From Limnomonas spitsbergensis (Eukaryota; Chlorophyta; Chlorophyceae; Chlamydomonadales), in contig JAYJMM010000032.1 of the NCBI GenBank assembly GCA_037349105.1, positions 2,384,501 through 2,448,500 on the forward strand: a DNA stretch of 64,000 nucleotides, written 5' to 3'. This document shows, one piece after another, positions 4,317 through 61,702 of this stretch. Position 1 is the stretch's first letter. Each line of letters begins with the position of its first letter. The notes beneath the pieces were generated by a model. It searched no databases. It was not told where the DNA came from and saw nothing but the letters and a program-made list of their open reading frames with translations. A program made the position numbers and the translations under genes.

Positions 4317-7300
4317 TCACCAGCCCTCCCCTACCAGGTTTTCCCTACCAAACGTGCGTGCATCGTGCCTCTCCGGCCCCCACTCCATCCCCTCGTGTTT
4401 CTCCATGATGTGGATCCAGAAGTCGTGGATGGCCGTCACGCGCTGCTCCGCCCGCATCCCCGCTGCCACGTCGAGCACCAAGCTCCGCACGACGGGGTCG
4501 CCGTACGGATGCATCTTGCGCCCGTGCACTCGCCAATCGAAGCGCGACAGCAGCACGTGCTTTGCACCAAGGCGTGCGGCGGTCGCGCCCAAGATGCACG
4601 CGGGAAGCTGCTCGGCAGCTGCCTCTGCCCCCTGGGCGAGAGACACGCCTCCGCTGCGGGTGCTCCTCCTGCCTCCGCCAGCGGGCGCAGCTGCGACGTC
4701 CAGGCCTTCATCTTCAGGTCTTGAGCCAGCCCCTCCCAGCCCCTCCTCCTCCTCTTTGTCCTCAACATTGTCCGCCTCAGCTGCAGCCATGTCCCCGCTT
4801 ACACCCTTACGGGAAGCAGTGACTGCTGCCACAACCATGACGTCCACATCGTGTGCCTCTTGATGTAGGACCAGGGATGAGCAGTCGGTGCACGTGCCCA
4901 TCAGCATCATACGCCTGGTAGGAATTAGGGCAGGTGAAGGGGAGGGTGGAAGCACAAAACCACATACTTCAAACAACGACATGGTTTCAGGCACATCGGC
5001 ACTCGTGCCCATCAGCATCATATGCCTGATAGGGTTTAGGGCAAGTGAAGGGGAGGGTGGAAGCACATCTTCGAGCAGTAGTCCTCAGATTTCATAAATA
5101 TTGTGTACAGTACACAGAAAAGCTAACAAAACCCATTGTACTGTATACCAGTACCGCAGTATGGTGTACTGTAGACCCCAGTACGGTGTACTGTAGACCC
5201 CAGTACGGTGTACTGTAGACCCCAGTACGGTGTACTGTATACCCCAGTACGGTGTACTGTAGACCCCAGTATGGTGTATTGTATACCCCAGCATCTTGTA
5301 CTGTAGACCCCAGTACGGTGTACTGTAGACCCCAGTACGTGGTACTGTAGACCCCAGTATGGTGTACTGTAGACCCCAGTACGGTGTACTGAAGACCCCA
5401 GTATGGTGTACTGTAGACCCCAGTACGTGACCGCCAGAGGTGACCGCCATCCCCCTGTCTACCTTGCTTTGCATATTCCCCTGCGTCTGGGGTTCAGGTT
5501 TAAGGGCTTAGGTTTCAGAGTTTAGCGGAGCCCCCTGTGCCCACCTTCCTGGCTTGATGCAGGTCAGCACCATGTCTGGAGTGACGAGCAGTCCATCAGG
5601 GGTAACCACGGACTCTCCTCCTTTGAGAAGACCCATCGACATGCCTGAATAGGAAGGGGTCAAGGTCAATAATTCGATAATATAGGGGTTTGGGGGCTAG
5701 GATTTGGGATCTGGGGATCAGGGTCTCGGATTCGGCATCTGGGGATCAGGGTCCAGGATTTGAGACCTGGGCATCAGGGTCTAGTATTTGAGATATGGGG
5801 GGGATTCGGGTACAGAGTTTGAGATCAAGAACCACATTTTAAGATCCGTGGAATAGGGTCTAGGATTAGAATGTAGGGATTAGGGTCCAGGATTTGACAT
5901 CCAGGTATCAGGGCCTATGACTTAAGGAAAAGGAATCAGAGTGTAGGATTTTTGATGCAGGGAGATGAGTTTGAGCTGGGTCCAGAATTTGAGAGAGAAC
6001 AGGCACGCGTGATGGTGGGGTAGCGGTTGGAAGTTATGCAGCAGTTGCCTCTCTCTGGCTCACGGAATGTGGGCACCATGACCAAGAGAAAAAATCAAAT
6101 CAAATAGAAATGAATGAATAAGAATGTGAGAAACCTGGGCAATACTCACCTGGGGGGACGCCCAGCATTGAGGTCCGATCCAGCTGCAAGCCACCTATTC
6201 TGTCCGGCTCCCGAAAGATGTACGCGAGGGTTGGGCGCTTGGCTTGCAGCGGCAGCGCCGTGATCCTTCCCGCAGAGTCCAGCTGGATGGACCAGCGCAT
6301 CTCCAGAGGATCGACGTCGGTTCTGCACAGGAGCGACATGCTCAAATACCGTACTGTACACACGGTGATTGCACGCCCAGATGGACCAACGCGTCGCCAG
6401 GGTGCCGAAATCGTTTATGCGCAAGAAGGGGATGCCCGGTTGGAAATCAAATAACGTGCAAACGGTATTTGCGCAACCAGATGGAAAAGAACACCGCCAG
6501 TGGGCCGACATGGGTCCTGCGCAAGAGCAAGATGCTGAGTCGTTAAGAATCGAAACCGATTTGAATTTTGACTTCACACCCTAGGCCTGGATTACGGTCT
6601 CGGCCTGAAGGCACGCCCCTGGCTTCGAGTCTCGGGCACAGCTTTGGGTATGGGAAGAAGGCGATGGGTTGCCCATACTTTTACATCCGCGCAATGGCCA
6701 CACTCCTCTGCTTCTTTACCCATCTGATATGGGTTTTGCTCCAGAGGGGGGGTACGTTATGCAGAATCCGGAGGCTGTTCTGCTTTGAGTTTGAGAGACC
6801 GAAGCGAATATCTTCTGGCGGTCTGCCGAGAATGAAGCTGCTGCACCAAGCAAAGCTGTCGTCTCAGAGCTCCCCCCCCTGATCCAAACCCTGCTAGTCT
6901 CGAGCTGAGAGCTTTGAGCGGTCCCCCGCGCCTACAGTTTGAGAGTCAAACTCTCCCGAACTATAGGCGCAGGAACCGCTCTGATACCACTGTAAGAGTT
7001 CTTTGTCCTGCCATGTGCTTTGGTGGGCACGGGTCTATACTAGACGCTTGCGTATGAATGAGATTTGGCTTCAATGCTCTGCAATCCACTGCGCGAAGGC
7101 CGGTGATACAAGGGGTGCTTACACGCTCTTTACGTCGAGCAATCGTGGAACACAATTCCAGTTCACACATTTTCCATGAAGGCGCGGCTTTGTAACAACA
7201 AAATTTCCAAACCATCACTGTATTTTATCTGTTGACACATGTTCGTCCAAGCGCTTTCGAAACGCATCATCAATAATGATGCAAGACTGGTGCACATCAG

Positions 7301-10300
7301 AATTGGGGAATTTTCGAATTCCAATTTTTGGAAAGTCTCACCTGCTGGGGTCGCCTGGCGGAGGCATGACCAGGGGTTTGTAGCTCGCGCGGAAATCTTC
7401 GCCTAGGACGCCTCCGCTGGCCTTCATGCCTTTGGCCTTCACGGCGCGACCCTGAAGGAAGGATTGAAAAGTAGGGAAAGGGAGAAAAGGGCGGCCTGTG
7501 GCGTGAACAGGACATCCGTGCCAGGCACGCCGTCGCTCGCCTTCATGCCTGTAATCTTCACGGCGCAACCTTGCAGGCAAGGTTTGAAATAGGGGGTAAG
7601 GGTCAAAAGGTAATCTGGGGCCTGGTTAAAACAGGACATCCGTGCCAAGCACGCATTCGCTCGCCTTCATGCCTGTAACCTTCATGCCGCGATCCTGAGG
7701 GCAGGGTTTGAAAGAGAAGGTAAGGGTCAAAAGGTGATCTGGGGCGCGGTTAAGACGGGAGATCTGTTAACGCAGCTCGCCTTTGTGCCTTCGACCCTCA
7801 CAGAGCGATCCTGAGGGCTAGGTTTGAAAAAGTAGGGATTGAGTAAAAGGGCGATCTGGGGCGCGGTTAAAACCGGCAGATCCGTGCCAAGCGCGCCGCC
7901 GTTTGCCTTCATGACTTTGGCTTTAACCGTGCGGCCTTAAGGGCGAGGTGCTGAGGTTACAAAAGAGAGGGAAAGAGTGTACACACGGTGTGACCCTGGT
8001 GCGAAAATAGGGAAAATGGGAGAAGTGCCACCGTGAGGACATGTTTTGAAGAAGGTAGCGGAAAAGATAATCAAGGTGCGTTTATCGGTAGATGCTGTTT
8101 GGCAATGGAGACATTGCCGGACCAGCTCATAGGCCCTCACACTTTTTTTTGCCCTCCATACAGCTATAACTTATAGCTGTATGGAGGGCAAAACAAAGTG
8201 TGAGGGCCTTTGAGCTGGTATAACGTTTAGCCTATAAGGTCTACAAAACCACCTCACCTTCCCCCCGACATGAGCCTCAACCCATCCCCTGGCCACACCC
8301 ACCCCTCGACAGGCCGTAGCTGACGTATCTCATTTTCTTGCCCTTTATATGCGGCTGTAAGATACAAAACCTAGAATCTTGAGCCCTGACCCTGTCCTCA
8401 CTTGAGTGGGCATAAAAAGTGAGATGTTTCTGTCCATGAAACCTTCCAGGTCGCACTTTCTTGCCCTCCATTCGGTTATGCGATATACAAGAACTACAAT
8501 CTTGAGCCCTGTCCCCGTTCTCACTTGTGTGGGCATGAAAAGTGAGATGTTTCTGTCCATGAAACCTTCCAGGTCACTACTTCGTTTGCCTGCATACAGC
8601 TAGCAGATATACACAAACTACAATCGTGAGCCCTAAGCCCGTTCTCACTTGTGTGGGCATGAAAAGTGAGATGTTCCCGTCTATGAAGCCCTCCGGGTTG
8701 AGCTGATCAGGCGGCATCAGAGCCGTGAAGATCCTGGCACGCCTGGAGGTATGAAGGGGTGTGAACGGATGAGGAAAGTAGGAGGGATGTGAGGGGCGAG
8801 AGGGGTCATCAGAGCGGGGAAGGTAAAGGCACACCTGGTGGTATGAAGAGGTGTGAACGGGTGATTGGAAGGATGGAATTGTGTGATGGGTGAGAGGGGG
8901 CATCAAAGCGGGGAAGATACTGACGTTTGCACAGCCTGCCCTCCTTCACTCACCCATTCACCAGGACGGGCTTCATCGCCTCCGGGTCCACAGCCTCCAT
9001 ACTGAACTCGTGAACGATGATGCTGATCTCTAGGTAGGTGTTGGACACCTGGACATAAGGGGGGGGGGCGATAAGGGGGGGCAGGAATATGGAGGTGAAG
9101 GGAATGTTGGATGCTGAAGCCATGAACGATGATGCTGATCTCTAGGTAAGTGTTGTACACCTGAGCATGAAAGGGGGGCAGTGTGCAACAGAAGGGGCAG
9201 GTGGGCAGGAGTATGGAGGTGAAGGAAATGCATCATATTGACATCTTGGATAGTAATGCTGATCTCTAGGTAAGAGTTGGATACCTGAGCAGAGGGGGTG
9301 GGGGGGCATTGAGCCAGTGTGCAACAGCGGGGGCAGGTGGCCAGGAGTATGGAGGTGGGGGGGACTGCTTCATATTGACATCTTGGACGATGATACTGAT
9401 CTCCAGGTACGTGTTGGACTCCCGAGCATGAAAAGGGGGGCAGTGAGCAACAAGGGGGTAGGTGAGCAAAAGTATGGAGGTGGAGGAAATGTCTTTAACA
9501 TAATTTGTGAACGATGATGATGATCGCCTAGTGGGGGTTTTGGACACCGGGGGATGGGGGGGGAGCAGTGAGCAACAGGGGGGGGGGGTGGGGGGGGGAG
9601 GTTGAGGGATGTTAGATGTAAAAACTTGTGAATCATGATGATGATCTCTGGGTACCTGTTGGATACCTGGGCATGAAGGGGGGGGCAGTGAGCAACAGGG
9701 GGAGGGCGGGATACTGGGGTAGGTGGGCATGAAGGGGGGGGGCAGTGAGCAACAGGGGGAGGGCGGGATACTGGGGTAGGTGGGCATGAAGGGGGGGGGC
9801 AGTGAGCAACAGGGGGAGGGCGGGATACTGGGGTAGGTGGGCATGAAGGGGGGGGGCAGTGAGCAACAGGGGGAGGGCGGGATACTGGGGTAGGTGGGCA
9901 TGAAGGGGGGGGGCAGTGAGCAACAGGGGGAGGGCGGGATACTGGGGTAGGTGGGAATGAAGGGGGGGGGCAGTGAGCAACAGGGGGAGGGCGGGATACT
10001 GGGGTAGGTGGGCATGAAGGGGGGGGGCAGTGAGCAACAGGGGGGAGGGCGGGATACTGGGGTAGGTGGGCATGAAGGGGGGGGGCAGTGAGCAACAGGG
10101 GGAGGGCGGGATACTGGGGTAGGTGGGCATGAAGGGGGGGGCAGTGAGCAACAGGGGGAGGGCGGGATACTGGGGTAGGTGGGCATGAAGGGGGGGGGCA
10201 GTGAGCAACAGGGGGAGGGCGGGATACTGGGGTAGGTGGGCATGAAGGGGGGGGGCAGTGAGCAACAGGGGGAGGGCGGGATACTGGGGTAGGTGGGCAT

Positions 10301-13300
10301 GAAGGGGGGGGGCAGTGAGCAACAGGGGGAGGGCGGGATACTGGGGTAGGTGGGCATGAAGGGGGGGGGCAGTGAGCAACAGGGGGAGGGCGGGATACTG
10401 GGGTAGGTGGGCATGAAGGGGGGGGGCAGTGAGCAACAGGGGGGGGCGGGATACTGGGGTAGGTGGGCATGAAGGGGGGGGGCAGTGAGCAACAGGGGGA
10501 GGGCGGGATACTGGGGTAGGTGGGCATGAAGGAGGGGGGCAGTGAGCAACAGGGGGGGGCGGGATACTGGGGTAGGTGGGCATGAAGGGGGGGGGCAGTG
10601 AGCAACAGGGGGAGGGCGGGATACTGGGGTAGGTGGGCATGAAGGGGGGGGGCAGTGAGCAACAGGGGGGGGCGGGATACTGGGGTAGGTGGGCATGAAG
10701 GGGGGGGGCAGTGAGCAACAGGGGGGAGGCGGGATACTGGGGTAGGTGGGAATGAAGGGGGGGGGCAGTGAGCAACAGGGGGGGGGGGGATACTGGGGTA
10801 GGTGGGCATGAAGGGGGGGGCAGTGAGCAACAGGGGGAGGGCGGGATACTGGGGTAGGTGGGCATGAAGGGGGGGGGCAGTGAGCAACAGGGGGGGGCGG
10901 GATACTGGGGTAGGTGGGCATGAAGGGGGGGGCAGTGAGCAACAGGGGGAGGGCGGGATACTGGGGTAGGTGGGCATGAAGGGGGGGGGCAGTGAGCAAC
11001 AGGGGGGGGGCGGGATACTGGGGTAGGTGGGCATGAAGGGGGGGGGGCAGTGAGCAACAGGGGGGGGCGGGATACTGGGGTAGGTGGGCATAAACATGAA
11101 GGTAAGACTGAAGGTGAAGGGTATCAAAGTGTTAAGGTTGGGGCTGCTACCTGGTGACACGCGTATTGCAGCACCACCTTTGCACTCAGGAAAACCCGTA
11201 GCCAGAAAACTGCAGCACATTCTCTCTCTCTTTCCATCTCTTTCCATCTCTTTCCATCTCTTTCCATCTCTTTCCATCTCTTTCCATCTCTTTCCATCTC
11301 TTTCCCAGTTATTATCCACCCTCTGTTCTCCACTGTGCTTTCCCTTTTAATTCGAACTTGAATTCACTTCATTTCCATATCCAGCGCTTTCCTTGTACAT
11401 CTCTTCACTCACCCTCAGCACCGTGTTGACAAAGTCCGTCAGCCCGGGCGGGCCGTACAGATGCAGGGGGATGTCTGCTTGCTCGTGCCCACTCTCCCGT
11501 GACGCGCTGATGGTGCACAGCAGCCCCTGCAGGGGGTCGGGGTTGCTGTATTAGGTTTTGGGTTTCAGATTAAAAGACCAGCCCCTGCAGGGGTACAGGG
11601 TTGCTGTATTAGGGTTTGGGCTTCATATGAAGAGACGAGGGCTGATTTGCAGGAGAATAGATAAGGGCTTAGGCTTCAGGGCTCAGGGCTCAGGGATCCA
11701 GCCCCTCTCCCGTGGCGCGTTTATCGTACACAGCCGCCCCTGCAGGGATTTCGAGTCAGCTGGTTAGGGCTAGGGTTTCAGTTGAAGAGGTAGGGGTTTC
11801 ATGTTTCAGGGCTCAGCCGACACACACCCGTGACGCACTCTAGTGCACAGTAGACCCTGCAGGGGGTCGGAGTCAATAGATCAGGACCGGGGGGGTCAGG
11901 TGAAGAGAAAAGGGTTTCAGGGCTCAGGGCTTGGACCGCTCTCCCGTGACGTGCTCATAGCCCACTGCAGCACCTGCATGGGTTCAGAGTCAATAGATGA
12001 GGGTTGAGGTTTCAGTTGCAGACACAAGGGTTAAACGTTTCAGGGCTCAGCCTGCTCACCCTGGACGTAATTTGAATTCCCTTTCAATTTCTTCTTCTTT
12101 TATTTATAATTCTAATTTCCTCTTCTTAACTGTTTTTTTAAGAATTGAAAAAACTTGCACATCAGACCCTGCATGTTCAGGGTTTAGGGTTCAATGTTAA
12201 AGGAGTAGATGTTCAGGTTCCGGTCCAATATTCAGGGTGTTGAAATGTCTAGGGATAAAAGCCCAGGGCTCAATGTTCAAGTTCAAGGGTTAAGGGTCAA
12301 GCCTGCTCTCCCTGGACACACGCCAATGGTTGAAAGTTTGGGGTTGTGGAGAAGGTGAAATCTGCTCTGCCTGGACATACAATTGGTTGTCAGTTATAGG
12401 GTAAAGGGTTCAGGGTGGATGGTGAATCCCGCTGACCCTAGACACACCAATGGTTGAAAGCTTCAAGGGTTTAGGGGTAAGGGTGAAGTGTGGGGCCCGC
12501 TCACCCTGGATATACCTCTGGTGCCGAGCAAGCCTTGCATGCCATGGTTCATTGTTCAGGTCTAATATATGTGTCCATGTCAATGTCCCTGTAAATGACC
12601 ATGCACCCACCGGCAGGCCCGCTACGCAGTCCGCTGACAAGCATGTGATGAAGATGGCCCAATGTCCACCTTAAACCTTGCCCACCTACCCACCCATCCA
12701 CCCACCGGCAGGCCCACGACGCAGTCCGCTGACAAGCATGGGATGAAGATGCTCCAAATGCCCACGTTAAACCTCGCCCACCCACCCACCCATGCACCCA
12801 CCGGCAGGCCCACGACGCAGTCCGCTGACAAGCATGGGATGAAGATGCTCCAAATGCCCACCTTAAACCTCGCCCACCCACCCACCCATCCACCCACCGG
12901 CAGGCCCACGACGCAGTCCGCTGACAAGCATGGGATGAAGATGCTCCAAATGCCCACGTTAAACCTCACCCACCAACCTAACCACCCACCCACCCACCGG
13001 CAGGCCTGCCACGCAGTCCGCTGACAAGCATGTGATGAAGATGCTCCAAATGCCCACCTTAAACCTCGCCCACCCACCCACCCATCCACCCACCGGCAGG
13101 CCCACGACGCAGTCCGCTGACAAGCATGGGATGAAGATGCTCCAAATGCCCACGTTAAACCTCACCCACCAACCTAACCACCCACCCACCCACCGGCAGG
13201 CCTGCCACGCAGTCCGCTGACAAGCATGTGATGAAGATGTCCCAATGTCCACCTTAAACCTCGCCCACCCACCCACCCATCCACCCACCGGCAGGCCCAC

Positions 13301-16300
13301 GACGCAGTCCGCTGACAAGCATGGGATGAAGATGCTCCAAATGCCCACGTTAAACCTCGCCCACCCACCCACCCATCCACCCACCGGCAGGCCCGCTACG
13401 CAGTCCGCTGACAAGCATGGGATGAAGATGCTCCAAATGCCCACGTTAAACCTCGCCCACCCACCCACCCATCCACCCACCGGCAGGCCCACGACGCAGT
13501 CCGCTGACAAGCATGGGATGAAGATGCTCCAAATGCCCACGTTAAACCTTACCCACCCACCTAACCACCCACCCACCCACCGGCAGGCCCGCCACGCAGT
13601 CCGATGACAGACAAGTGATGAAGATGCGGAACACCTTTGAAGTTCGCACGTGCTCCATGCGCCCAAACTGGCGCTGGGTGTCGTCGCCTGAGTTGAAAGT
13701 ACAGCAACATGTCAGCGGTACACAAGCAGTACGATAGTGGTACACGTGATGAACATCTGTAATCTGGCTGTCCATTAGGGGTCAGCAGACGAGGCAACGC
13801 TCCCAGAGAGATACCACGGCTTGGCGCTTTTAAGGGGTTGAAGATCCAGGTTCAGGGATTAGGCAACCAGGTAAAGGGTTGAGGGTCCAGGCGTCCAGCT
13901 TAAGGGTTACAGGTGCAGGCGTCCAGGTTCAAGGTTTAGCACTCCAGGTGCAGGGTTAAAGGTTAAGGCGTCCAGGTATAGGGTTCAGGGTCCAGGCTTC
14001 CAAGTTTAGGCGTCCAGATTTAGGTGTCTAGGTAAAGGCATCCAGGGTTTAGGTGTCTAGGTAAAGGCATCCAGGGTTTAGGTGTCTAAGGAAAGGCATC
14101 CAGGGTTTAGGTGTCTAGGTAAAGGCATCCAGGGTTTAGGTGTCTAGGTTAAGGCATCCAGGGCTTAGGTGTCTAGGTTAAGGCATCCAGGGTTTAGGTG
14201 TCTAAGGAAAGGCATCCAGGGTTTAGGTGTCTAGGCAAAGGCATCCAGGGTTTAGGTGCCTAGGTTAAGGCATCCAGGGCTTAGGTGTCTAGGTAAAGGC
14301 ATCCAGGGTTTAGGTGTCTAGGTTAAGGCATCCAGGGTTTATGTGTCTAGGTAAAGGCATCCAGGGTTTAGGTGTCTAGGTAAAGGCATCCAGGGTTTAG
14401 GTGTCTAGGTAAAGGCATCCAGGGCTTAGGTGTCCTCGTGTAGGCATCCAGGGTTTAGGTGTCTAGGTAAAGGCATCCAGGGTTTAGGTGTCTAGGTTAA
14501 GGCATCCAGGGTTTAGGTGTCTAGGTAAAGGCATCCAGGGTTTAGGTGTCTAGGTAAAGGCATCCAGGGTTTAGGTGTCTAGGTAAAGGCATCCAGGGTT
14601 TAGGTGTCCTCGTGTAGGCATCCAGGGTTTAGGTGTCCTCGTGCAGGCATCCAGGGTTTAGGTGTCCTCGCGTAAGGAATAACGCTTAAGGTGTCCTCGT
14701 GTAGGCATCCAGGGTTTAGGTGTCCTCGCGTAAGGAATAACGCTTAAGGTGTCCTCGTATAGGCATCCAGGGTTTAGGTGTCCTCGTGTAGGCATCCAGG
14801 GTTTAGGTGTCCTCGCGTAAGGAATAACGCTTAAGGTGTCCTCGTGTAGGCATCCAGGGTTTAGGTGTCCTCGTGTAAGGAATAACGCTAAAGGTGTCCT
14901 TGTGTAGGCATCCAGGGTTTAGGTGTCCTCGTGTAGGCATCCAGGGTTTAGGTGTCCTCGCGTAAGGAATAACGCTTAAGGTGTCCTCGTGTAGGCATCC
15001 AGGGTTTAGGTGTCCTCGCGTAAGGAATAACGCTAAAGGTGTCCTTGTGTAGGCATCCAGGCTATCAAGCGCCATGCCGGAATTACAACAGCTTCCTCAT
15101 TGTGATCCGGGGATTTCCCCAATGTTGGAATAACCCCATTGTCTTCCTCCTCCCCCCTGCCATCTCATTTTCCAGCCCTCCCATCCCATCCTCCCTTCTA
15201 AAACTTGCTCAGCCCTCTTTCTCCAGTAGCATGCACCTGCATTAAAGACAATGACCCCATTGTCTGCCCGCCCTCCCCTCTCCCCTTTTCCAGACGCCCC
15301 TCTCCAGCGGCATGCAACTGCACCAAAGACGACAACCCAACTGCCCCCCCCCCCCCCCTCCCCACTCCCTTTTTCAGCCCTCCTCTTCCCCCCTCCCCCC
15401 TCCCCTTTCCCCTCCCTCTCTCCCCAGTTGCCCGCACCTGCATCAAAGACAAGGACATCCTTTGCTCGCATAAGCACCACGGCTGGCTGGGCTCGATGCT
15501 GTGAGGCCTGGCTGCTGCTGGTGCCGAGGATGGTCATAGCTAGGGCCGTAGGGTTGCTCAGGATGAACCGCTGCGGGCATTGATAGGGTTTGGACAGGTA
15601 ATCGAATCAGGGTTTGGGATTAAGGGTTTCGCCCTACCACCTAAGACCTCTGTGAGCATCGATATGAGGGTTTGGACCGGTGTTCGGATCAGGGTTTGTG
15701 ATTTAGGGTTTAACTCTGTCGCCCTGACCATCTGCGGGCATTGATGTAGGGGGTAGACAGGTATTGGGATAATAAGGGTTTTAGAACCGTGTCGAGAGGC
15801 CTGATTGCTGTTGGTGCTCAGGACAAGCAAGGTCGGTCATGGGTAGGTAGGATTGCCCATACAAAACATCCTTATGAAATGCTGAGAGGGTGGCAAGTCC
15901 TGCAAACAGGGTTTTAGACGGAGGGATGGAGCAGGTTCTTCAAAGGTAGGATGGCGCAAACCCTACAATAAGCACTGGCAGCAGCTGCAGGGTTTGGTTG
16001 TTGTACGCACAAAAACAAACACTGGAAGCGGCTGCCTGGTTGCCTGAACCCTAAACCCTCAAACCCATAGGTGCAGAATTGCTCATAACAAACAACCTTA
16101 CAAAATGCTGGCAGTTGGTTTGGATGGCACGCACACTAATAAATGAACACTGGAAGTGACTGCCTGGTTATGTGCTAACTGAGGAAGGTCATAGGCCGGG
16201 AACATAGAAAAACAGTTAAGTTTTTGATACGCCATGGCTTCTTAGTAGCTTTGAGATTCCGCTCTATAGCAGCATCTCGCTATTTTATTTTAGCCGGAGC

Positions 16301-19300
16301 AAAAAGGAAGGCAGACGTCGGGGGACACGGGCAAGGTCCAGGGTGCGGGATGCCTCGCTCGATGCGGCCACCCAGTCCCATGCCAACCGGAGGAAGTGTT
16401 CATAGGTCAGAGACTGCCTACAAAAGTTCTGCAGGCATTAAAAATAAAAAAGTCCAGATGATAGCTGCCATATAGGTGTTCAAGATTACCCTCCGTCTCC
16501 CCCCTCTCCTAACCTGCTTATCCTCCCATTCCATGTCAAGCTGGTCGCTGCCGTAGCTCGCCCCTTTATACCCGGGCGGGAAAGGCGGTAACTCGGGCAG
16601 CACCTGAAGGGGCAACATAACAGATTTGTAAGTAATGAGGACGAGGTAATGACGTAAAGGTCACGGTACAAATAAATTATTAAACAAATCAATACCAGTG
16701 TCCGGCACCAACAAATAAATAATGAGAGACAAAAGGTGGGGAGGTGAGCAAGTTGCCGTAATACCGTAATACTTGATTTGCCTCTTCCCGAACACCCCGT
16801 CAAGGATCTTTTATAAGCTGGAATATGCCGAAATAATGTTAACTTATGACGCTGGGGGCAGAAGTCAAATGTTTATCAGTTGCGCACCCGCTGATCGACC
16901 GTCCCTGATCACGTTTATCGTCTGGGTGACCTGCATTTCACTGCACGCGGCCGTTGCTCGGTCTGCTGTCACGTCGCCGATAGATCAGGTGTACCCGTGG
17001 TTCCGTACATGTCCGGTCTCGAAGTACGGGGCTCGTCAGCAAATGTTTGATATCGCGAGCTAAGCTGCAGCAGCGTCTATTGGTTATTTCTTAAAGTATT
17101 CATAAAGCCGCAAAGACAACGTTTATTTTCTGCGGAGGCAGAGGACGTCTACAGGACAGAAATTTCATTAGTTGACGGCTGATAGATGGATAGGGGATGA
17201 GGGACATTCACGTAGCCGAGGTGAGCGTTATAGTATCCACCCTGTGGACCTGACCTACCAGCTAACCCACCCACCCACTGATATTAAACTCCCTAATAAT
17301 CGCTTATCAGGACATTCCAGACCTGGCCTTGCAATCAGCCATAGGCGGTGCGGCTGCTATTAGCTAGCCACTGGTATTCCACTTAAACCTTGAACTTTCA
17401 ACCCTAAGAATGCTACCCTAAGAATGCTACCCTAACCTTAAACCCTAAGAATGTTACCCCAAGAATGCTACCATATTTGCGTAGTTATGATAGTTCTGAA
17501 GGGTGCGACAAGATCAAGCGTACAAGTGTCCTTCACTGAGCATTCCCATTTTAAGCGGCAAAGAATCATTCAAATCGACAAGAACTAAGATTTTGTGAGC
17601 AGCAACGAAATCTGAAGATATAAGGGTAAGCTTGAGACAACAGTTTTAATAAATTTTCTTTAAAGAGAAACATGTTTTCCTTCCTAATTGAAAACGGCTA
17701 AAGCTGTTGCTGAGATGCAACGTTATGCTATTTCCCTCAAACGAGTACTCTGAACGGGGCGCTTTGCTGCTGCTGGTCCCCTGACATCTTGCAGGGGCCC
17801 CTGCCAGGGCACCCTGCTAAAAGGGGGAGGGGGGGCTACAAATTGCTTAAGGGCGGGGGGGGGGGGGGGCTACAAATTACTCAAGGGCGGGGGGGGGCTA
17901 CAAATTGCTTAAGGGCGGGCGGGGGGGGGGGGGGCTACAAATTGCTTAAGGGCGGGGGGGGGGGGCTACAAATTGCTTAAGGGTGGGGGGGGGGGGGCTA
18001 CAAATTGCTTAAGGGCGGGCGGGGGGGGGGCTACAAATTGCTTAAGGGCGGGGGGGGGGGCTACAAATTGCTCAAGGGCGGGGGGGGGGGGGGGGGGCTA
18101 CAAATTGCTCAAGGGCGGGGCGGGGGGGGGGGGCTACAAATTGCTGCAGTGCACTGCGATTTGCACCACATGCGGCACCATATCCACAGAAGGGATTGAT
18201 TTAAATAGTTCGTAACAAAGGAACATGCATCGCTTTGGACTAACTCATTTAAATTCAGGTGGGATCTTTAACATGCAGCAACCAACAGGTTCATAGGGTT
18301 AAGGGTTAACAGTTTATAGGGTTAAGGGTTTATAGGGTTTAAATGGTTTAGGGTTCGGGGTTCAGGGTTCATTGAAGGTGCAGTAACCCGCGCCCACCTG
18401 CGTTTGAAACATCTCCTGACAGGTCTCCTCGTCCACCTCCCCGCACCCTACACCAAACTCGTTGAGCTGCGTGGCGCTCAGCGGGGCCGCGGAATAAGCG
18501 GAGGAGGCCGAGGAGGAGGAGGGAGAGGTGCCAGCTGCGTCGCCCCCTTGCTCCCGCAGGCTGTTTGGCAAGGAGGCAGGAAGCAGCCCGGGGGAGAAGA
18601 ACACGGGATCCCGGTGGCCGGCCCATGAAAGGCCTCGACGCTCCTGCAATTGGGCCGGCAGCCAACTTTGTGATATCACCAAAGCATTCTATCAGTAAGG
18701 TACCCAATTTCAATCAGCATCAATCGATTGTTTCACCAAAGCATCGTATCCAATTTGTATGACTAGGCGCAGCCGAGATTACCTAGGCAGCCGCACCGGG
18801 CTTAAGCTAGATTGTAGGTTTTATTCTGTTGTGGGTCAGGTTTAAGGTTCAGGGTTAACATATGGGTGACTTCCATGCGAAGCCGAGGTTCCCTAGGTGG
18901 CTGCAGCGGGTGCGGAGCGGGGTTTAGTGGCTGCGCATGTTGCGTATGTTGCGTATGTTGCGTATGTTGCGTATGTTGCGCATGTTGCGTATGTTGCGCA
19001 TGTAGGGTGTTTTGGTTGCAGGGTTCAGGGTTGACATTCGGGTGACTTGACAGCGAAGCTGGTGTTTCCTTGGTGCGGAGCTGGATTTTAGGGTTCACTC
19101 TGTTAGGAGTTAGGTTAAGGGTTCAGGGGTTACCTCCGGGTCACTCGGATGCGAAACCGAGGTCCCCTAGGTGGCCGCAGCGGGCGCGGAGCGGGGTCTG
19201 AGGATTTGTTCCGTAGGGGGATAGGTTGAGGGTTCAGGGTCTACCTGTGGGTGACTTGATTGTGGAGCTGAAGGCCCCTCGGCGGCTGAAGGGGGAGCGG

Positions 19301-22300
19301 AGCGAGGCGGCCGGACGTTGGGCTTAGACGTGGGGTTCTTCTCCGTCGCAGCCTTGGACACCTGATAGGAAAGGCCAGATCAGGATTTCACTTTTACAAT
19401 TGAAGGCATGAAAAAACGCTTTCCGTGTACACATGGGTGGGAGTCATATACCATATGTGAGGCGGGGATTGGGGTTGGGGGCGGGGCGTGGGAAACTGGG
19501 AGAGGGCGGCGGGGTATGTGAGAGGTGAGCAGAAGATGAGGAATGTAGATCAGGGGCAGGAGTGGGAATGGGAGTTGGTGCGGGAATGTAGACTAGGGCA
19601 AGAGTGGGAATGGGGGCAGGTGCAAGGAGTGGGGATCAAGGCAGGAGGGGGGAGGGGAGCAGAGAGCGGGAGTGGGATCGGGGGCAGGTGTGGGGATGGG
19701 GGCAGATGTGAATATGGGGTATCGAGATCGGGGGCGGGAGTGGTAATGGGGGCTGGGGGGCAGATGTGAGGAGTGGACATGGGGGATCGGGGCAGCGACA
19801 GATAGGGGGGGCGGGGAGGGGAGGCATGTGAGAGGGGAATGTGGAATGGGGACAGGTGCGGGAAGTGGGGCATGGGGGAGCGGGGGCAGGGGTAGAGCAT
19901 AAGAAGTGGGGAGCGGGTTGATGTGAAAGGGCACTGAGAATCGTTTCAGGAGCGGGAATATGAGGCGGGTTCAGGGAGGTCCTGTGTCCTCACCCTCTAC
20001 CATTCAATCTCTGACTGACCTGCATAACCTTGTTGAGCTTGTTCATAAAGGACTCAGTGTCTTCTGCGTCCTTGCCGCGATCGGCTCTGCCACCTGCCTC
20101 CCTGCCCCCAGCCGCTCTGCCACCCGCCTCCTTGCCGCGCTCTGCTCTGCCGCCAGCCTCCGCGTTGCCGCCTGCCTCCCTCCCGCGCACATCCCTGCTC
20201 ACCTCCGCGCTACCGCCTCCTTCCCTGGCACTCTGCTTCAACTGCACGCCCACCGGCCCCTCCCTCGGCGTCCAATCCCTCCCAGGAGCCTTCTGGAAAG
20301 GAGCGCCGGCCCGGCCGCCTACCGCACCCGCTACCCTCGACGCCTCCAAGTCCTGTATTACCGCTTGTGTCTTCGATGCTATCAACGCCGCGACTGCTTC
20401 TGCTTCTGCGGCTGCTTTCGCTTCTGCCCTCGCTCTTGGCGCCGCAGCCGCTGGACCTGCACCTACTCGCGCTGCGCCACCTGGCGCCGCACGTGCTGCC
20501 GCCGATGAGGATGTTGGAGATGTTTGAGGCGACGAGGCTTCCTCCGTAGCATCAAGGCCCCCTTGTCTGGACCGGCCCAGAACGCCCTTGTTCAAGACGG
20601 CGTTCAAGGCAAAACGAAGCCTTCGTGCCTCTTCAGTTGTTGCTGCTGCTGCTGGGACGCTGCCACTGGGCTGCTGGGCCGCTGCTGCTGCTGCTGCTAC
20701 CATTGCTACTGCTCCTGATGATGACGATGTCTGAGGCGACGTCACCTCTTCTTTATGCAAGCGTGTGCTGACCCGACCCAGCACAGCATCAAGGGCAGAG
20801 CGCAATCTACTGGCCTCGCTGCTGCTGCCGCTGCCGTCGCTGCTGCTGCTGCTTCGGCCGTTGCTGCTGTTGCTGCTGCTGCAGCTCACTGACACATTCT
20901 CCATCGTCAAAGCCCCTGATGACAGCGTTTTTCGATGATTATGTGGGTTGGGGGAAGAGAGAAAGCGATAGTTCTTCATTTTAGGCTCACAGGAGGTTAA
21001 GTAGGACAGAGGGGTCCTGAATCAAGGGGTGAAACAAAGGGCTTTCTATCCCGCACTTTATGGGAACATCGTTTTATTATCTCCAGGTCTGAACCTCGCG
21101 GAGTCATGATTAATGGAGCGGAAAGTTATAAGTGACTTGAATAAGCAGGAAGTGGAAGGCATGTACAGTGCTGGGATCTGGTGAGGGACTCGTGTGTAAC
21201 ATGAAGGGGTGTGTGACAGCGTTAAACAGTCAGCGGACAAAGTTTATCTGACTTCGGTCTTTCCAAGTACCGGTATATTATTTTGTTTAGTAAACTTTTA
21301 TGACTGAATAACCATAACACAGTAAAATGTTGACTGAGGAGCCATACACTTTTTGCGGCAGCGTCAAAAGCCCGACCGCCACGGCCGTAAATCGCTCGAC
21401 ACAGGACCCGTACCTGTTCCTTTCCGGCCCTCCATAACAGCCAAGGTCTTGCCTCTGCTGTCTTGCCCCATGCTAGCCTGCCCAGCCATCATGGCGGGCG
21501 CGACGTCCCTCGATTCTGTGCGGCCTGCCCTTGATACCGCATGCGATGAGCGGGACGCAACACCATCCGGGGACGCCTGCCAGGATGCAACACCGTGCTC
21601 TGGCGCTGTACCGCTCTTAGACGTCTGTGGCTCGGGTTGCTGCGGTTGTTGCTGTTGCTGCTGCTCGGGTTGTTGCTGCACGGGCTGTTGCTGCTGCTCG
21701 GGTTGTTGCTGCACGGGCTGCTGCGCCTGTCCCTTGCTGCTGGCAGAGGACAGCCGTTGCACTAGGACTTCTTTGACACCGCTCTTTGGCAGGCCCAGCT
21801 GCATCAGGCGTGCCTGAAGGTCAAGTACCTGTGCCAGACAAACAAGGAAACAAGCATGTGGGGTGAGCAATGCACCTGTGCCAGACAAACATGCATGAGG
21901 GGTGAGCCATGCATGAGGGGTGAGCCATGCATAAGGGGTGAGCCATGCATAAGGGGTGAGCCATGCATGAGGGGTGAGCCATGCATGAGGGGTGAGCCAT
22001 GCATGAGGGGTGAGCCATGCATGACAAAAGCTGGGTTCTGTTAAAAGGTGTATATCGCATGTTTGTCGGGCTTTTCGGAACGGTATTGAAGATGGTCAGG
22101 CTGTTCAGAAAATTATTTCGGAGGATCGGGCTCTACAGAAAGGAGGATCAGATAGTCAGACAGGTACCGATCATGAATCAGTAGGTATGGTGACACCTGC
22201 GTCTGCCTGCAGTCCTTGTAACTGCTACTGCCTTGACCTGGGAAGCATCCTCTCAACCCCGCACAGATTGCCCTCCATTGGTCGCCACGTCAAGATGCAA

Positions 22301-25822: not shown

Positions 25823-25853
<31 letters not shown>

Positions 25854-34212: not shown

Positions 34213-34243
<31 letters not shown>

Positions 34244-42102: not shown

Positions 42103-43965
42103 ACTATCGATATGTAGCTACGGTATATGCATCGTTGAATACCGGTACATACATCACCCACTGCATGCATGCATCAAGTTACTGCCTAACTTAGGTAGTG
42201 CTGCTGAAGCACCTGGGCATGATTACAATTCTACCGGTGTGAATGGAATTTTGCATGTGTTCGTCTTAAGACGGGACTCCCAGAACCATGTATTGATGTA
42301 CGGCAGGGTAACCCGGTACGGAAACACGGTACGGGAATACGGTGCGGTACGGTACGGATACGGTACGGACAAAAGGGACGGTACGGTAGGCCAATACGGT
42401 CCAAGATTTTCCCCATTTTCAAGGCTCAGAACAGCAGGATCCACACATAGAAAGACATGCATGCAACACTCACATGACTGTTTGATCCCATGCACATCCT
42501 GACATACTGCATGGCTGCATGACAGTCCCCATGCAATTTTTGCATGGCCCCCAAATAACCACCAAGGATCTCCATGCATGCATGCAGATTTACCAGGCTG
42601 ACATGATAGGAGAAAATATGATCATTGATGCAATCCCAAACTCCTTACAGATCGCCATTACAATGTTCCAACATGCCATTCAGCATTTCTGTAATTCAGC
42701 TAGTCCATATAAACGCTACCCACCAGCATGGCACATGAAATTTTACATGTATGAATATAGCAATAGAAACAAGAGGCCTCAGAATCACCTTGCATAGTTG
42801 CTGAGTTGCATGGCATGCATGGAAATCACTTCGTAAGGAGACACGGAGCTCCTGTGTCTTGCCTCCCTCCTGGGAGTCCTGGACTCATGGGCTCCTACTC
42901 CTCCTGGCCTCCTGCCCTCCTCCCTCTATGCAGCTTTGGATTGTGACTTGGTGCCAAGTTCTGTCTTATTGCCACTAGGTTTTGGGTTAGACTTGTACTT
43001 TCACGAGCAACGAATGCCTCTTTACCACTGGAAGCGAGCGAGCTTACGTAGATTTTGATGCCCTGGATGTGTGGACTGTGGACGGTGTGGATTTGCCAGA
43101 CGAGGGAGACGATCACACGTCATCACTGCAATATGCCTGTATCACCCGTCCTGACGTCTTACACGCCGCAACTTGTCCTGTTATGCCCGCGAGGTGATTG
43201 GTAAATCGCGTAGTGTTGACGATCATATAATTACAAAATTTGTATCGCCCACGCTTGGCCGGGCCAGCCTTCGATGACGGCTGCAAAATCCAATGCGAAT
43301 CAGCCGTGTACGCTGCATTCCTGTTCTCAGCGCTACCTCCATCGCTCTCATGCAGTCATGCAGTGCAGGAAATGGCGACCGTACTTGGCCGTGTTGCAAA
43401 CGGTACGGTACGGTACGGATACGGTACGGGATTTTAGGCCAATACGGCCCGTACTGGGTAACCCTGATGTACGGTATCATGTACGAGGACATGGCTGAGG
43501 CACTGTGCAATCTGCGGAGAGACTGTCATCGCCCTGTTTGCACTGCTTGGCCCTCCGATACAAGGACTCAGTGAGGGTGCAAACGCGCTGTAATAACACT
43601 TGTGCAGTGTTGGTGAGGGCATGGATCCCGATCAGATTTCACAACTTGGGTCCGTTCCTATCTACCCGGCATCAAGACATCGGGCTTGATTTTACGTTAC
43701 ATCAATGCAGATTCAATGACCTTATACACGCTCTCGCTGTCCCATAGAGAACCCTAGGCGCCCTGTCCAGTTGGGGGTCTTGGTGGGGTACGTACGTACC
43801 GGTTGAGGATTGCGAATATTGCCTTGAACTTGGATAAAATGGCCCAAACCCTACCCTGCCAGTGACATGTGAGGGCACGCGGTCTCGGTTTTGTAACATA
43901 GTCACCTTAGCCATACACACCTCTCCGGCACGCTCGGCTGCGTCCCCTTATTTCATTCGCCAATA
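42103..43965. other. Intergenic region upstream of the plastid S1 gene
   Basis: Holds two related TACGG-rich blocks in opposite order: 42293-42410 ('gatgtacggcagggtaaccc' then 'ggtacggtacggatacggta') and 43395-43475 ('ggtacggtacggatacggta' then 'gggtaaccctgatgtacgg'). It also has ATGCATG-rich words (42510-42600, 42800-42830). The last 200 bp before 43966 should include the S1 promoter. No clear TATA box was seen. Confidence 0.55.
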
Positions 43966-55300: not shown

Positions 55301-55630
55301 TGAGCAGGGTTCAGACGCACCAGAGGTGTGATGACCTTGACACACCCGGCCCCATCAGAAATCGCTCCTCCCTGGCAAGGCCACAAGCACCATCACTCCG
55401 CCCCCAGTTTATTTGAGCGTGCTTCAGCTTCATCACGACCCACAGCCGTGGAGGCTGGGTGCAGCAAGTCCACATGCTTGGGCCACCAGTCTTAGGCCGC
55501 CCAGGTTTAATACACCTCGTCCCTGTGGTGGCTACCCTGCTGCTACCCGGTGGCTACCCTGCTGCTACCCGGTAGCTACCCGGCGGCCCCCAAAGGTGGT
55601 AAACACGTATAACTAACCCATGGCTGTTAC
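52346..55630. other. Intergenic region between RPS1 and the right-hand gene
   Basis: Contains RPS1 3' sequence, a short direct repeat 'agggcgtatgttgccct(t/g)aagtc' (about 53090 and 53168), and two diverged copies of a longer repeat (about 54060-54250 and 55025-55250). The latter share 'gttgtttggggttgaggg' and 'gtcgacgccag(t)ttt(c)agt'. The minus-strand frame 53417-53707 (96 codons) and frames around 54613-55011 have no recognisable domain. The last exons of the minus-strand gene to the right probably lie here but could not be placed. Confidence 0.45.
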
Positions 55631-58600
55631 CTGTTGAGGGCTGTTGGCAAGGGTGGTGAGAGCCCTGGTAGGCTGTTCAGCAAGGGACCTCCACCAGCCC
55701 CCTGTTGGCGAGCTGACATGGCCGACTGCACCCGCCTGTAGTCTCTACCCTCGGCTTGCGGGCCCGCCCCGCCCGATGCCCTGGCCCCCAAGCCCGGCCT
55801 CCCAGCCTGCCCAGGGGCGGACAACCGATTCGACCAAGCGCTTGCAGTGGAAGGCGTGGCAGTGCCGTTGCTGCTCCGCCGAGCAACGTCCGGCAGCGCG
55901 CTTGGGTTGGAAGCTGAGTTCTGGCCGGAGAGTGGACGGGGGCTGGCACCAGGCACTCCTGAGTCTGGGCCATCGAAACCTGACCTGTGCAAGCTCCCCC
56001 AGCGGCCCACGGTCGAGGGAGGCAGCGGCGCCCCTCTGGCTTGTGCCCTACCGCCCTCAGCAACCAACCGCAACCTCTGCCGCTCAACAGCTGGGCAGGC
56101 CACGTCATCTCTGGGAATTACGTGCGGCAAAGCCATCTGCAAGACATCGCCGCTGACGCACATGCGGGCCGAGCCAAACCTTCTCAACGGCGCCTGCCTA
56201 CTAGAAGGTGCAATCGGCACTGGGTTCCGCGAGGAGCTGAAGAGCGTCTGGAGCGACCGCTGCTGCTGCTGCTCGCTGACCCAGCGCCGTGCGAGGCCCT
56301 GCTGCTGCTGACTACCCGCTTCCGACAGTTGACAGGATCCTGATCGCGGCGGCGGGATGGCTCCCGCCTCATCCTCCGGACATGGCTCCAACCCAGGGAG
56401 GGGACTGCTGCTGTCGCCGGTGCAGCTCCTGGAGCGGCGGGCGCGAGACCTGGCGCACCGAAATGAGGATTCAGTCGCTCCTCAGCAGGAGTGTAGCATT
56501 GCTAAGCAAGGGGCATAATGCTGGTCAGGCACCCCCCCCACGCACACACCCCATCCACCTCAGATTCGCTCCGGCCCCCACACTTTTCCACACATGCTCA
56601 CACTTTTCCACACCTGATTATTTTGTTTAGACCAAGATATGAAATGTGCATCACTGGACAAATGTTAACATTGGTCGCTGGGGGATGGTTTGTATTGGAA
56701 GGCTGTTTGTGTTGGAGGATTGTATGGCAAAAGCGTAAGTGTGACCAGAGGTCAAGACAGTAAGAGGCACAGCTCTCACAAAACTGTTTCATACATGGCT
56801 GAGTAAGGGTTTCCCGTACAACCGTTGTGAGGGATCCATACCACCGTCACTGATCCACGTTGTCCCTGCGCTCACCGAATGTCCACATGCGGGCTTTGAC
56901 TTCCTCCACCGCTTGGCTGGTTCGCCTCCACAAAGCCCGCCATGCTGCTTTCAAGCGTAGTGCGGCGCGACCGCCGAGGTCTGGGCGCTCTGGACAGCAA
57001 GGCTAAGAAGCGCAGCTGCCTGACCGAGGCTTTGGTTCCGGAGCGGAGCTGGCGCCGTTCTGCCGCCAGTATGTCGAGCAAATCACTGGATGCCGGCCCC
57101 GTGTCCTTACGTCTCGTTTCCTGCCCGGCAGCGACTCCCCACCGCCCGCACGCGGCCTTCGCCAGCCTGGAGTTCAGCTCTGATACGTCCATATCGCTGT
57201 GGCAGCGTCTGAGCACGCTGAGCTGCTCCTCGAGGCTGTCGGCATGCAACCGGACGTTCAGGCTGCGCAGGTCGGCCATGATGCTGTCCACCAGCTCTGA
57301 GGGGCTGAATGAGCCGTCTACGGGTACGAGGGGGCAGCCGAGGGCAAGGCTAAGGCACACGAGGGTGTTAAAAGGAGCAGAGGCGGGGGGCAGCCGAGGG
57401 CAAGGCTCGTGCATGCGAGGGCGTAAAGCGGAGCAGAGGCGGGGGGGGATGGGCGAGGGCAAGGCTCAGGCATGTAAGAGCGTCAAAAGCAGCAGAGGCG
57501 GGGGGGGATGGGCGAGGGCAAGGCTCAGGCATGTAAGAGCGTCAAAAGCAGCAGAGGCGGGGGGGGATGGGCGAGGGCAAGGCTCAGGCATGCAAGAGCG
57601 TTAAAAGCAGCAGAGGCGGGAGGGGATGGGCGAGGGCAAGGCTCAAACATGCAAGAGCGGTAAAAGCAGCAGAGGCAGGAGGGGATGTGGAGGCTGCGGC
57701 TTGTGGCACATCACTCTATGACTACAGGTCTGTTGAACAATCCCAAAGCTAAAGCTTTGAAGGTTGGCTGCTCACCGTTGAGCAGCTGAAGCTCCTCCTC
57801 CCAGTGGTGAATGAGGCTACCCCCTGCTGGCCTCCTATGTGTCATCCCATCACCTGATGAGCAAACCACAGGAAAAGTCGGGAAGCGACGTACTGATATG
57901 TCAAGCGCAGTCAGATATTTCTTCTCACCTCCTCTTCTATAGGGGGGGGGGCAGGGTTAAGGGTAAATGTTGAGGGTTCAGCTTTTTCTTGTTTGCATCC
58001 TCTTCTGGAAAGGGGGGGGGTAGGGGGGGGGAGCGCCAGGCAGCCTGAAGCCACAAGGTAGGTGTAAGCACAGCCTCCACAGCGAGTCACAATTCAGTCG
58101 TCACCCAGCTGGCCAGCTCCCCCTCTTGTCAGACTGCTCATTTGTTTCGTACATATTGATATATGGCAGTCAACCTTGGCCTTTTATGCATATGGGCTGG
58201 TTGGTATGTAGCAGCTTGAGAGGAGCTTGCTTACCACTTTCAGATTTCCGCCTTCCGGGTGGCGGTTCCACGGGCCGGCGACGGCCGCGAGCCTGCTCAA
58301 ACATTTGGACCAGCTCCTGGCAAGTTCCTGGGGGCGGCACCGGGAGCTGGCCGTCCTCTGCGGCCATGGCAATGACCAGACGATGCCTGTTTGGATGAAG
58401 GGATGCAGAAGAGTGAGAAAGGCCTCACTCAGCAGGAAGCTTGTTTGTCCAGTCTCTCACTTGGTAATGCGTCCTGACAATGACCTGGCTGTCCACTGTG
58501 GCCATGGCGATTACCAACTGGCGCCTGTTTAAATGAAGGGGAGCACAAATGATCAACCAGTGCCTATTAAAATTAAGGGAGACAGAAAGTTGGGAGGGGC

Positions 58601-61600: not shown

Positions 61601-61702
61601 CCGCCCGGTCTGCCTCTGCATGTGCTTGCGGTGTAGCGGGTTGTCGTCGGAGGGCCAGCGCCCTAGCCCCCGGCATCTGGCACTCCAGGTACGGAACGCG
61701 TG
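55631..61702 (-). CDS. Unidentified gene, seven internal exons (5' end beyond window, 3' end unresolved)
   Basis: Exons on minus: 61702-61386, 60993-60786, 60578-60529, 59876-59298, 58386-58235, 57317-56876, 56449-55631. Phases fit across all six introns (2567 nt). The first donor is GC rather than GT (AAG|GCAAGT). The product has no domain I can name. Notable parts are a basic N-terminal segment (GRPYIPGEELARLRLIRTAS) with poly-Ala, then a compact hydrophobic/aromatic stretch (SLLVLNLGPMWWRRFALLP). A helical region follows with STHPQLSLTLRMLASYITTK and CFEESLALFEQAQAILERRY, then further Leu-rich helices (LEEQLSVLRRCHSDMDVSEL). It ends in a Ser/Pro/Gly/Gln-rich low-complexity part. It may be a scaffold or regulatory subunit. 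The exons were chosen on splice consensus, codon phase and biased composition, so individual edges (especially 60529-60578 and 56449) could be wrong. Confidence 0.55.
57330..57695 (-). repeat. About 60-bp array beside an exon acceptor
   Basis: Six units of GATGGGCGAGGGCAAGGCTC plus AGGCATGTAAGAGCGTCAAA plus AGCAGCAGAGGCGGGGGGG start about 20 bp from the acceptor of the exon ending at 57317. The innermost units are the most diverged, so the array grew away from the exon. Confidence 0.85.
58386..58575 (-). repeat. Copies of an exon start with its acceptor
   Basis: The genuine exon start (58386, minus) encodes HRLVIAMAAEDGQ after CATCCAAACAG. A copy at about 58450-58530 encodes RRQLVIAMATVDSQVIV after CATTTAAACAG, and a third fragment lies near 58545-58575. 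The duplication spans the acceptor. Confidence 0.8.
58765..59060. repeat. About 38-bp array with core GCATTTAAGGTGTGATTTCA
   Basis: Seven head-to-tail units (plus 'aacgctttctcctcct'), followed by progressively decayed versions to about 59250 ('gcattacaggtataccttca'). In an intron of the right-hand gene, next to the donor of the exon ending at 59298, whose donor is 'cagGTGAGG'. The decayed end nearest the exon suggests the same origin. Confidence 0.85.
59900..60415. repeat. 27-bp array GGGTTGAGGGTTTTGCATAG
   Basis: About 18 units of 'agggttcagggttgagggttttgcata' with telomere-like words (GGGTTTAGGG) scattered inside. It lies immediately upstream, in transcript order, of the exon starting at 59876. 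It is not a telomere because the units are long, variable and interstitial. Confidence 0.9.
61085..61360. repeat. About 46-bp array CAGCAGCTGTTCAAACTGATGT…
   Basis: Five to six units of 'ttcaaactgcacgaccatca', 'gcatccagcagctgttcaaa', 'ctgatg', with sub-repeats 'gttcaaactgat'. In the intron with the GC donor, between exons 61702-61386 and 60993-60786. Confidence 0.9.

What the first reader, a model, noticed from the sequence alone, without database searches (positions are those of the whole stretch)
4317..61702. Introns built from tandem copies of exon-intron junctions in several unrelated genes
In at least four genes (RNase Z-like, palmitoyltransferase, peroxidase, right-hand gene), and probably in RPS1, intron repeats are degenerate copies of the adjacent exon end together with its donor or acceptor. 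Seen directly: exon 8 end x10 (12600-13600), exon 10 start x6 (9010-9672), exon 11 end x3 (8340-8700), exon 12 start x5 (7395-7940), exon 4 end x5 (18750-19320), exon 7 both ends, and palmitoyltransferase exon 4 end x7 (26993-27139). Tandem duplication of AGGT-containing segments is a published model for intron birth. Here it seems to act repeatedly on existing junctions and to account for much of intron length. I infer a genome-wide, junction-targeted duplication process, perhaps transcription- or R-loop-linked.
Basis: partly seen in the sequence, partly recalled or inferred. Interest (0 to 1): 0.92.

Follow-up and report, generated by a model that had tools for sequence, protein, structure and literature searches.

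The report
Introns lengthened by duplicated exon edges
In a green alga, most likely the Arctic snow alga Limnomonas spitsbergensis, many long introns hold tandem copies of the neighbouring exon's edge with its splice site, so these introns likely grow by short local duplications that splicing is predicted to remove.

Summary
The core observation is real and not confined to this window. In 95 introns of kinesin, TCP-1, HSP70 and P450 genes elsewhere in the genome, 23 of 190 exon ends have a copy in their own intron, against 0/380 other introns, 0/190 inverted and 1/380 shuffled. Intron length tracks duplicated sequence (r=0.84). Four of 16 paralogous intron pairs differ by presence or absence of such an array. 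Copied splice sites show no clear sign of selection. Best reading: short tandem duplications of about 50-170 bp, tolerated when spliced out, lengthen introns and leave fossil exon edges. 'Junction-targeted' is only partly supported: with a detection bias corrected, 18 of 31 arrays cross a junction against 9-11 expected, but the excess shrinks and mostly loses significance if introns were short at seeding. R-loops are untested. New variant of a known kind.

The parts
19245..19361 (-). RNase Z-like gene exon 4
   Evidence: anchored splice sites
18838..19193 (-). 3 intronic copies of exon 4 end with donor region (19111-19193, 19020-19061, 18838-18919)
   Evidence: 75-79% identity
15213..15330 (-). 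2 copies of exon 7 end with donor region (exon 7 ends at 15438)
15796..15823 (-). weak copy of the exon 7 start region
   Evidence: score 18
13581..13687 (-). RNase Z-like exon 8
12599..13527 (-). 10 copies of exon 8 end + donor, period about 96-100
   Evidence: 85-92% identity
11413..11526 (-). RNase Z-like exon 9
11579..11990 (-). 4 copies of exon 9 start + acceptor, 5' of the exon
   Evidence: 78-90% identity
8954..9048 (-). RNase Z-like exon 10
9111..9685 (-). 5 copies of exon 10 start + acceptor region
   Evidence: 76-84% identity
9668..11091 (-). 57-bp x25 C-rich minisatellite adjoining the exon 10 copies in the same intron
8649..8742 (-). RNase Z-like exon 11
8377..8574 (-). 2 copies of exon 11 end + donor, period 124
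   Evidence: 83-87% identity
8801..8922 (-). 2 copies of exon 11 start (one with acceptor)
7342..7451 (-). RNase Z-like exon 12
7511..7943 (-). 4 copies of exon 12 start + acceptor region
   Evidence: 74-78% identity
6380..6435 (-). 1 degenerate copy of exon 13 start (exon 13 = 6150-6322)
   Evidence: 70% identity
4996..5050 (-). 1 copy of exon 15 start + acceptor (exon 15 starts at 4914)
   Evidence: 85% identity
26859..27013 (+). palmitoyltransferase (DHHC) exon 4
27014..27148 (+). 6 perfect intronic copies of the 21-bp exon-4 end + GTA donor
27351..27529 (+). 2 older copies of exon 4 end (27351-27381, 27492-27529)
   Evidence: 77-82% identity
27456..27707 (+). 3 copies of exon 5 start + acceptor region (27456-27489, 27607-27639, 27686-27707; exon 5 = 27787-27893)
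58482..58548 (-). copy of the start of a right-hand gene exon (exon starts near 58390)
   Evidence: 76% identity

Best explanation
In this alga, segments of about 50-170 bp lying inside an intron or across its border with an exon stand in tandem copies, which likely arose as local duplications that were tolerated because the outermost donor and acceptor, predicted to be the ones used, still splice the copies out. Shown: the copies are local, direct, partial and degenerate, sit in introns that paralogues share, usually carry GT or AG with them, are absent from the same intron of some paralogues, and rise with intron length in the sample. Inferred: the mRNA is unchanged (homologous proteins and open frames agree, no RNA was read here); secondary growth of arrays by slippage or unequal exchange; perhaps a somewhat raised rate of formation around the 3' splice site. 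The exon-edge copies then drift as neutral fossils.
For: Exon-end copies in own intron 23/190 (set A) and 9/38 (window), with inverted 0/190 and 0/38, other introns 0/380 and 0/74, same-gene introns 0/70 and 0/38, shuffled 1/380 and 0/76; exon interiors 60-120 bp from the junction 2/118 against 23/128 ends in the first 64 introns. Self-duplication cover is level across the junction and fades over about 50 bp into the exon (70 introns), as expected for units about 100 bp long that run over the border. Four of 16 paralogue pairs shown differ by a junction-crossing array: kinesin intron 1126 bp with seven 82-bp units at the acceptor against 541 bp with a single one (an older donor-side duplication of about 135 bp is shared); TCP-1 329 against 227 bp and 756 against 445 bp; P450 565 against 386 bp. 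Length against duplicated bp r=0.84; remainder 302 bp with and 286 bp without duplication. Core splice dinucleotides in copies, averaged by junction: donor identity 0.87 against 0.85 in neighbours, acceptor 0.83 against 0.77; AG intact 48/76 (0.60 expected). Periods not enriched for multiples of 3: 11 of 44 in set A, 6 of 22 in the window.
Against: Uniform duplication does not fully fit: junction-crossing arrays exceed uniform placement about 1.6-2.3 fold under two of three nulls; exonic overhang is shorter than uniform within the unit (acceptor mean 41 against 61, p=0.0004; donor 41 against 57, p=0.012); duplication is denser in 3' halves (0.60 against 0.46, p=0.017; set A alone p=0.055, window alone p=0.21). 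These hint at a hot spot near acceptors or at selection on overhang. GT is intact in 59 of 67 donor copies, above the 0.73 expected per copy, though 26 of the 67 come from one array. Some paralogous introns differ in length with no array to explain it (HSP70 374 against 206 bp, 249 against 123 bp). No RNA evidence was seen for which sites are used.
Confidence: 0.72

Rival explanations
1. Junction-targeted duplication: a process linked to transcription or splicing makes duplications preferentially at splice junctions, chiefly acceptors, with the unit ending within about 50 nt inside the exon.
For: Arrays crossing a junction 18/31 against 8.8-11.1 expected in set A and 11/22 against 4.8-6.6 in the window; acceptor-side edges 15 in exon [5,50) against 7 in intron [-50,0), both sets; acceptor overhangs 21/25 at or below 49 nt; 15 of 21 arrays at >=85% identity overlap an exon, 6.5 expected; introns 0.27 against 0.04 duplicated in non-genic blocks.
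Against: Donor side shows no excess of exonic edges (9 against 8). With introns capped at 230 bp at seeding the excess is not significant in either set alone. Set A alone gives 10 against 5 acceptor edges, p=0.20. The non-genic control is one window without annotation. Acceptor against donor counts 25 against 15, p=0.15.
Confidence: 0.25
2. Functional decoys: the copied donors and acceptors are kept to regulate splicing or make protein variants.
For: Most copies keep GT (59/67) or AG (48/76); the palmitoyltransferase 21-bp array is in frame and open.
Against: By junction, splice dinucleotides are hardly better kept than neighbours; periods not enriched for multiples of 3 (11/44); some arrays are present in one paralogue only.
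Confidence: 0.06
3. Intron birth by tandem duplication of AGGT-containing exon (Rogers/Hellsten model): the introns themselves arose from these copies.
For: Same type of mutation; the potato RdRp case duplicates an intron-exon border (PMC4974935, passages read).
Against: Introns sit at the same positions in paralogues with and without arrays; introns under 200 bp have no exon-end copies (0 of 14 in set A).
Confidence: 0.04
4. Artefact: low-complexity similarity, misassembly or wrong gene models.
For: Some introns are C-rich; long-read assembly.
Against: Shuffles and other introns are clean; window copies other than the 21-bp array are 70-95% identical, unlike assembly duplicates; models are open, in frame and colinear with homologues.
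Confidence: 0.02

Closest known systems
[quoted passage not shown]
   Same: Tandem duplication of a segment holding a splice site; the potato RdRp duplication copied an intron-exon border, and the same potato gene has an 83-bp duplication inside an intron (passages read).
   Different: Here existing introns grow; no new intron was seen to be made, several exon ends per gene can be involved, and one junction has 26 detected copies.
Intronic minisatellites (recalled)
   Same: Tandem arrays with a regular unit.
   Different: The array runs over the exon border, so one unit is real coding sequence and the others are its decayed copies.
Tandem exon duplication / mutually exclusive exons (recalled)
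   Same: Exonic sequence copied next to itself.
   Different: In most cases only the first or last tens of bases of the exon are copied with one splice site, so no usable exon results (inferred).
Introner elements (recalled)
   Same: Repeated sequence in many introns.
   Different: No sharing of exon-end copies between introns: 0/380 other introns and 0/70 same-gene introns match (set A).

Membership tests
[quoted passage not shown]
   paralogue pairs share the intron with and without array
[quoted passage not shown]
   67 donor and 76 acceptor copies span the splice site; inverted copies 0/190 in set A
Minisatellite / tandem repeat array | adjacent direct copies with a regular period | tested here: met
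   TRF; smallest offsets 51-170 bp in 42 of 44 set A arrays, two longer (235, 548)
Introner elements | similar element shared among many unrelated introns | tested here: not met
   exon ends against other introns 0/380, set A
Introner elements | terminal repeats and target-site duplications | not tested
   not looked for
Regulated decoy or alternative splice sites | splice dinucleotides kept better than neighbours | tested here: inconclusive
   by junction 0.87 against 0.85 (donor) and 0.83 against 0.77 (acceptor); per copy GT 59/67 against 0.73 expected, AG 48/76 against 0.60; no significance test, copies not independent
Regulated decoy or alternative splice sites | use of the copies in transcripts | not testable with these tools
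   no RNA reads held

The most novel reading that the evidence does not exclude
Introns of this alga grow at their 3' splice sites through a transcription- or splicing-linked duplication process that repeatedly copies the acceptor with the first 15-50 nt of the exon; it sets intron length across the genome and would be a mechanism for the long-intron habit of volvocine algae.
Probability: 0.25. Interest if true: 0.85.

Novelty: new variant of a known kind. Interest (0 to 1): 0.6.

Why it matters
How introns become long is an open question. For the core-Reinhardtinia volvocine algae a comparative genome paper says that the mechanism behind their atypical intron lengths is likely ancient and that any advantage of such lengths is unknown (PMC8226300, passages read). 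Here much of the length can be traced to local duplications with a built-in clock: the conserved exon edge against its drifting copies. It supplies natural decoy splice sites of known origin, a test bed for how the spliceosome picks the outermost pair, and a caution for gene prediction, because decayed exon edges with intact GT or AG lie beside the true ones.

Tried and rejected
Naive enrichment test: rejected as the headline, because exon-bearing pairs diverge at half the rate and are over-detected; several such pairs match almost only in their exonic part (listing). It was replaced by arrays found from intron sequence alone, which weakens the claim. Present-day intron length as null space: biased, since arrays lengthen the intron; collapsed and capped versions were added, and the capped one removes significance in each set alone. 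Selection for or against decoys: no clear signal. Unit lengths in multiples of three: no excess. Peroxidase exon and RPS1 S1 exon regions: no copies. Literature: 8 searches listed no paper that I recognised as describing exon-edge arrays in introns; two of them listed only the top 15 of 41 and 12 of 39, and most subscription papers are not in that library. In what I read of the Limnomonas paper (results section part 1 of 2 and passages) they are not mentioned. The Pfam scan of the RNase Z-like protein gave 0 families, so its name rests on relatives. One search turned minus-strand loci round by mistake; onwards uses them as fetched.

Limits of the sample: set A is 95 introns resolved from 101 candidate exon pairs, out of hit lists of 139 of 139 kinesin, 72 of 72 TCP-1, 39 of 43 P450 (4 lone rows not typed in) and 37 of 88 HSP70 hits (only the four genes fetched); pairs whose DNA was not in hand were dropped. 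Five genes were picked partly for wide exon spacing, later ones for compactness; the set A median intron is 353 bp and the published mean 788 bp. Earlier calls used fewer introns: 64 and 70. The same-gene control covers only introns whose gene mates the script recognised (35 in set A), and its 'foreign' introns may include some of the same gene. Several thresholds and nulls were run without correction for multiple testing. Copies inside one array are not independent. Set B is the discovery window, 19 introns, with the exon 6-7 intron left out because exon 7 start is not placed. One search placed the exon 9 donor one base early; it was corrected.

Full report
What was checked. The window is part of a 260,226,709-base genome in 124 contigs. 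The RNase Z-like protein has its best named relatives in Chlamydomonas UWO241, Haematococcus and Gonium. The genome of the Arctic snow alga Limnomonas spitsbergensis is published as 260,248,090 bp in 124 contigs with 54.15% GC, placed near UWO241, with a mean intron of 788 bp. I take that as the likely source; it is inferred from these numbers, and the sizes differ by 21 kb.

Gene models. Exons 2-15 of the RNase Z-like gene were anchored on splice sites, except the start of exon 7. Exons 8-15 join into one open frame of 462 aa that aligns with algal homologues with no copy inserted at its junctions, and the palmitoyltransferase exons join into 315 aa with a DHHC domain. So the outermost donor and acceptor of each array are the ones that give the protein; transcripts were not seen.

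Observation. Within these introns lie head-to-tail, decayed copies of the adjoining exon edge with its donor or acceptor: 10 of exon 8 end, 5 of exon 10 start, 4 each of exon 9 and exon 12 start, 3 of exon 4 end, 2 of exon 11 end, and others. The palmitoyltransferase intron 4 holds a young perfect 21-bp array plus older copies of both flanking exon edges. One right-hand gene exon shows it; one peroxidase exon and two RPS1 exon regions do not.

Beyond the window. From Pfam hits of kinesin, TCP-1, P450 and HSP70 in the same genome I resolved 95 introns by reading frame, profile continuity and splice-site weights. Of 190 exon ends, 23 have a copy in the same strand of their own intron at score 18 or more. 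Controls at the same score: inverted 0/190, other introns 0/380, other introns of the same gene 0/70, shuffled introns 1/380. In the first 64 introns, exon interiors gave 2/118 against 23/128 for ends. Set A introns with at least one copy: 0/14 below 200 bp, 3/43 at 200-400, 7/22 at 400-700, 9/16 at 700 or more.

Intron length. In set A, duplicated bases correlate with intron length (r=0.84). Taking them away leaves a median of 302 bp in introns with duplication and 286 bp in those without. Duplicated fraction by bases is 0.27 (0.18-0.36) in set A introns, 0.56 in the window introns, and 0.043 (0.014-0.080) in 21 presumed non-genic blocks of the window (set A pieces of 300 bp or more against blocks p=0.029, window introns p=0.00001). 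Those blocks carry no annotation, so this contrast is provisional.

Gain after gene duplication. The kinesin genes on C35 and C124 share an intron. Both keep an old donor-side duplication with 96 nt of exon, but only C35 has seven 82-bp units with 45 nt of exon at the acceptor, and its intron is 1126 bp against 541. Two TCP-1 introns and one P450 intron show the same presence or absence. Of the other 12 pairs looked at, one kinesin pair has arrays in both members, another (698 against 205 bp) has an array in one whose match across the junction is weak (61%), one has none, and of nine HSP70 pairs six have no self-match and three a single one in one member. Some HSP70 pairs differ in length with no array to explain it (374 against 206 bp, 249 against 123 bp). 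That the array state is the derived one is inferred.

Is it aimed at junctions? Cover by self-duplication is level across the junction, about 0.17 at donors and 0.30 at acceptors, and fades over about 50 bp into the exon. Counting arrays naively, 33 of 44 overlap an exon against 16-19 expected, 25 with introns capped at 230 bp. But exon copies are found at greater age because one partner is conserved. With arrays found from intron sequence alone, 18 of 31 in set A still cross a junction against 8.8-11.1 expected from uniform placement (p<=0.0045), and 11 of 22 in the window against 4.8-6.6 (p<=0.028). A null with introns capped at 230 bp gives 13.2-15.9 for set A (p=0.056-0.26), 8.5-9.9 for the window (p=0.18-0.39), and 21.6-25.8 against 29 of 53 for both (p=0.023-0.22). 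Edge counts over both sets are balanced at donors (9 and 8) and tilted at acceptors (15 and 7, p=0.056; 15 and 6, p=0.030, at threshold 22); set A alone gives 10 and 5, p=0.20. Overhangs average 41 nt, shorter than uniform within the unit. I read this as a general intronic duplication process that spills over the borders, with a possible acceptor bias that needs the full annotation to settle.

Fate of copies. Averaged by junction, splice dinucleotides in copies are kept about as well as their neighbours (0.87 against 0.85; 0.83 against 0.77). Per copy, GT is intact in 59/67 (0.73 expected) and AG in 48/76 (0.60 expected); 26 of the 67 donor copies come from one array. Periods are not enriched for multiples of three (11/44 in set A, 6/22 in the window). 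I see no clear sign of selection for or against the decoys in this sample.

Comparison. Tandem duplication of exonic AGGT segments as a source of new introns, and one potato case that copied an intron-exon border, are published (PMC3443670 and PMC4974935, passages read). The difference here is that existing introns are lengthened, many times over, with decayed exon edges left behind. Eight searches of an open-access library listed no paper that I recognised as describing it.

Noticed in passing
window 13581-13687 (-): The RNase Z-like protein reads TCLSSDC where the bacterial RNase Z in the alignment has THFHADH; the algal relatives that cover this stretch also lack the histidines, and two relatives (one from Gonium) have a SAP domain: likely a metal-less green-algal RNase Z-like family that Pfam does not match.
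   Followed up: partly
window 26996-27148: The perfect 21-bp x7.3 array is in frame and open (GLLNYKV repeated), so use of an inner donor would add seven residues per copy.
   Followed up: no
window 46472-49999: 33-bp x107 array of 3.5 kb lying between two S1-domain hits, presumably of one RPS1-like gene.
   Followed up: no
window 61823-64000: 61-bp C-rich array that runs off the window end.
   Followed up: no
L010 (kinesin C34, profile 275) and L069 (TCP-1 C62, profile 93): Two predicted GC-AG introns among the first 64.
   Followed up: no
G000 C124:7568786-7572002 and 7584138-7586493: Two kinesin genes about 15 kb apart with matching exon hits, a good pair for dating arrays; the second could not be fetched.
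   Followed up: no
introns of set A+B: Duplicated sequence is denser in the 3' half of introns (0.60 against 0.46, p=0.017).
   Followed up: partly
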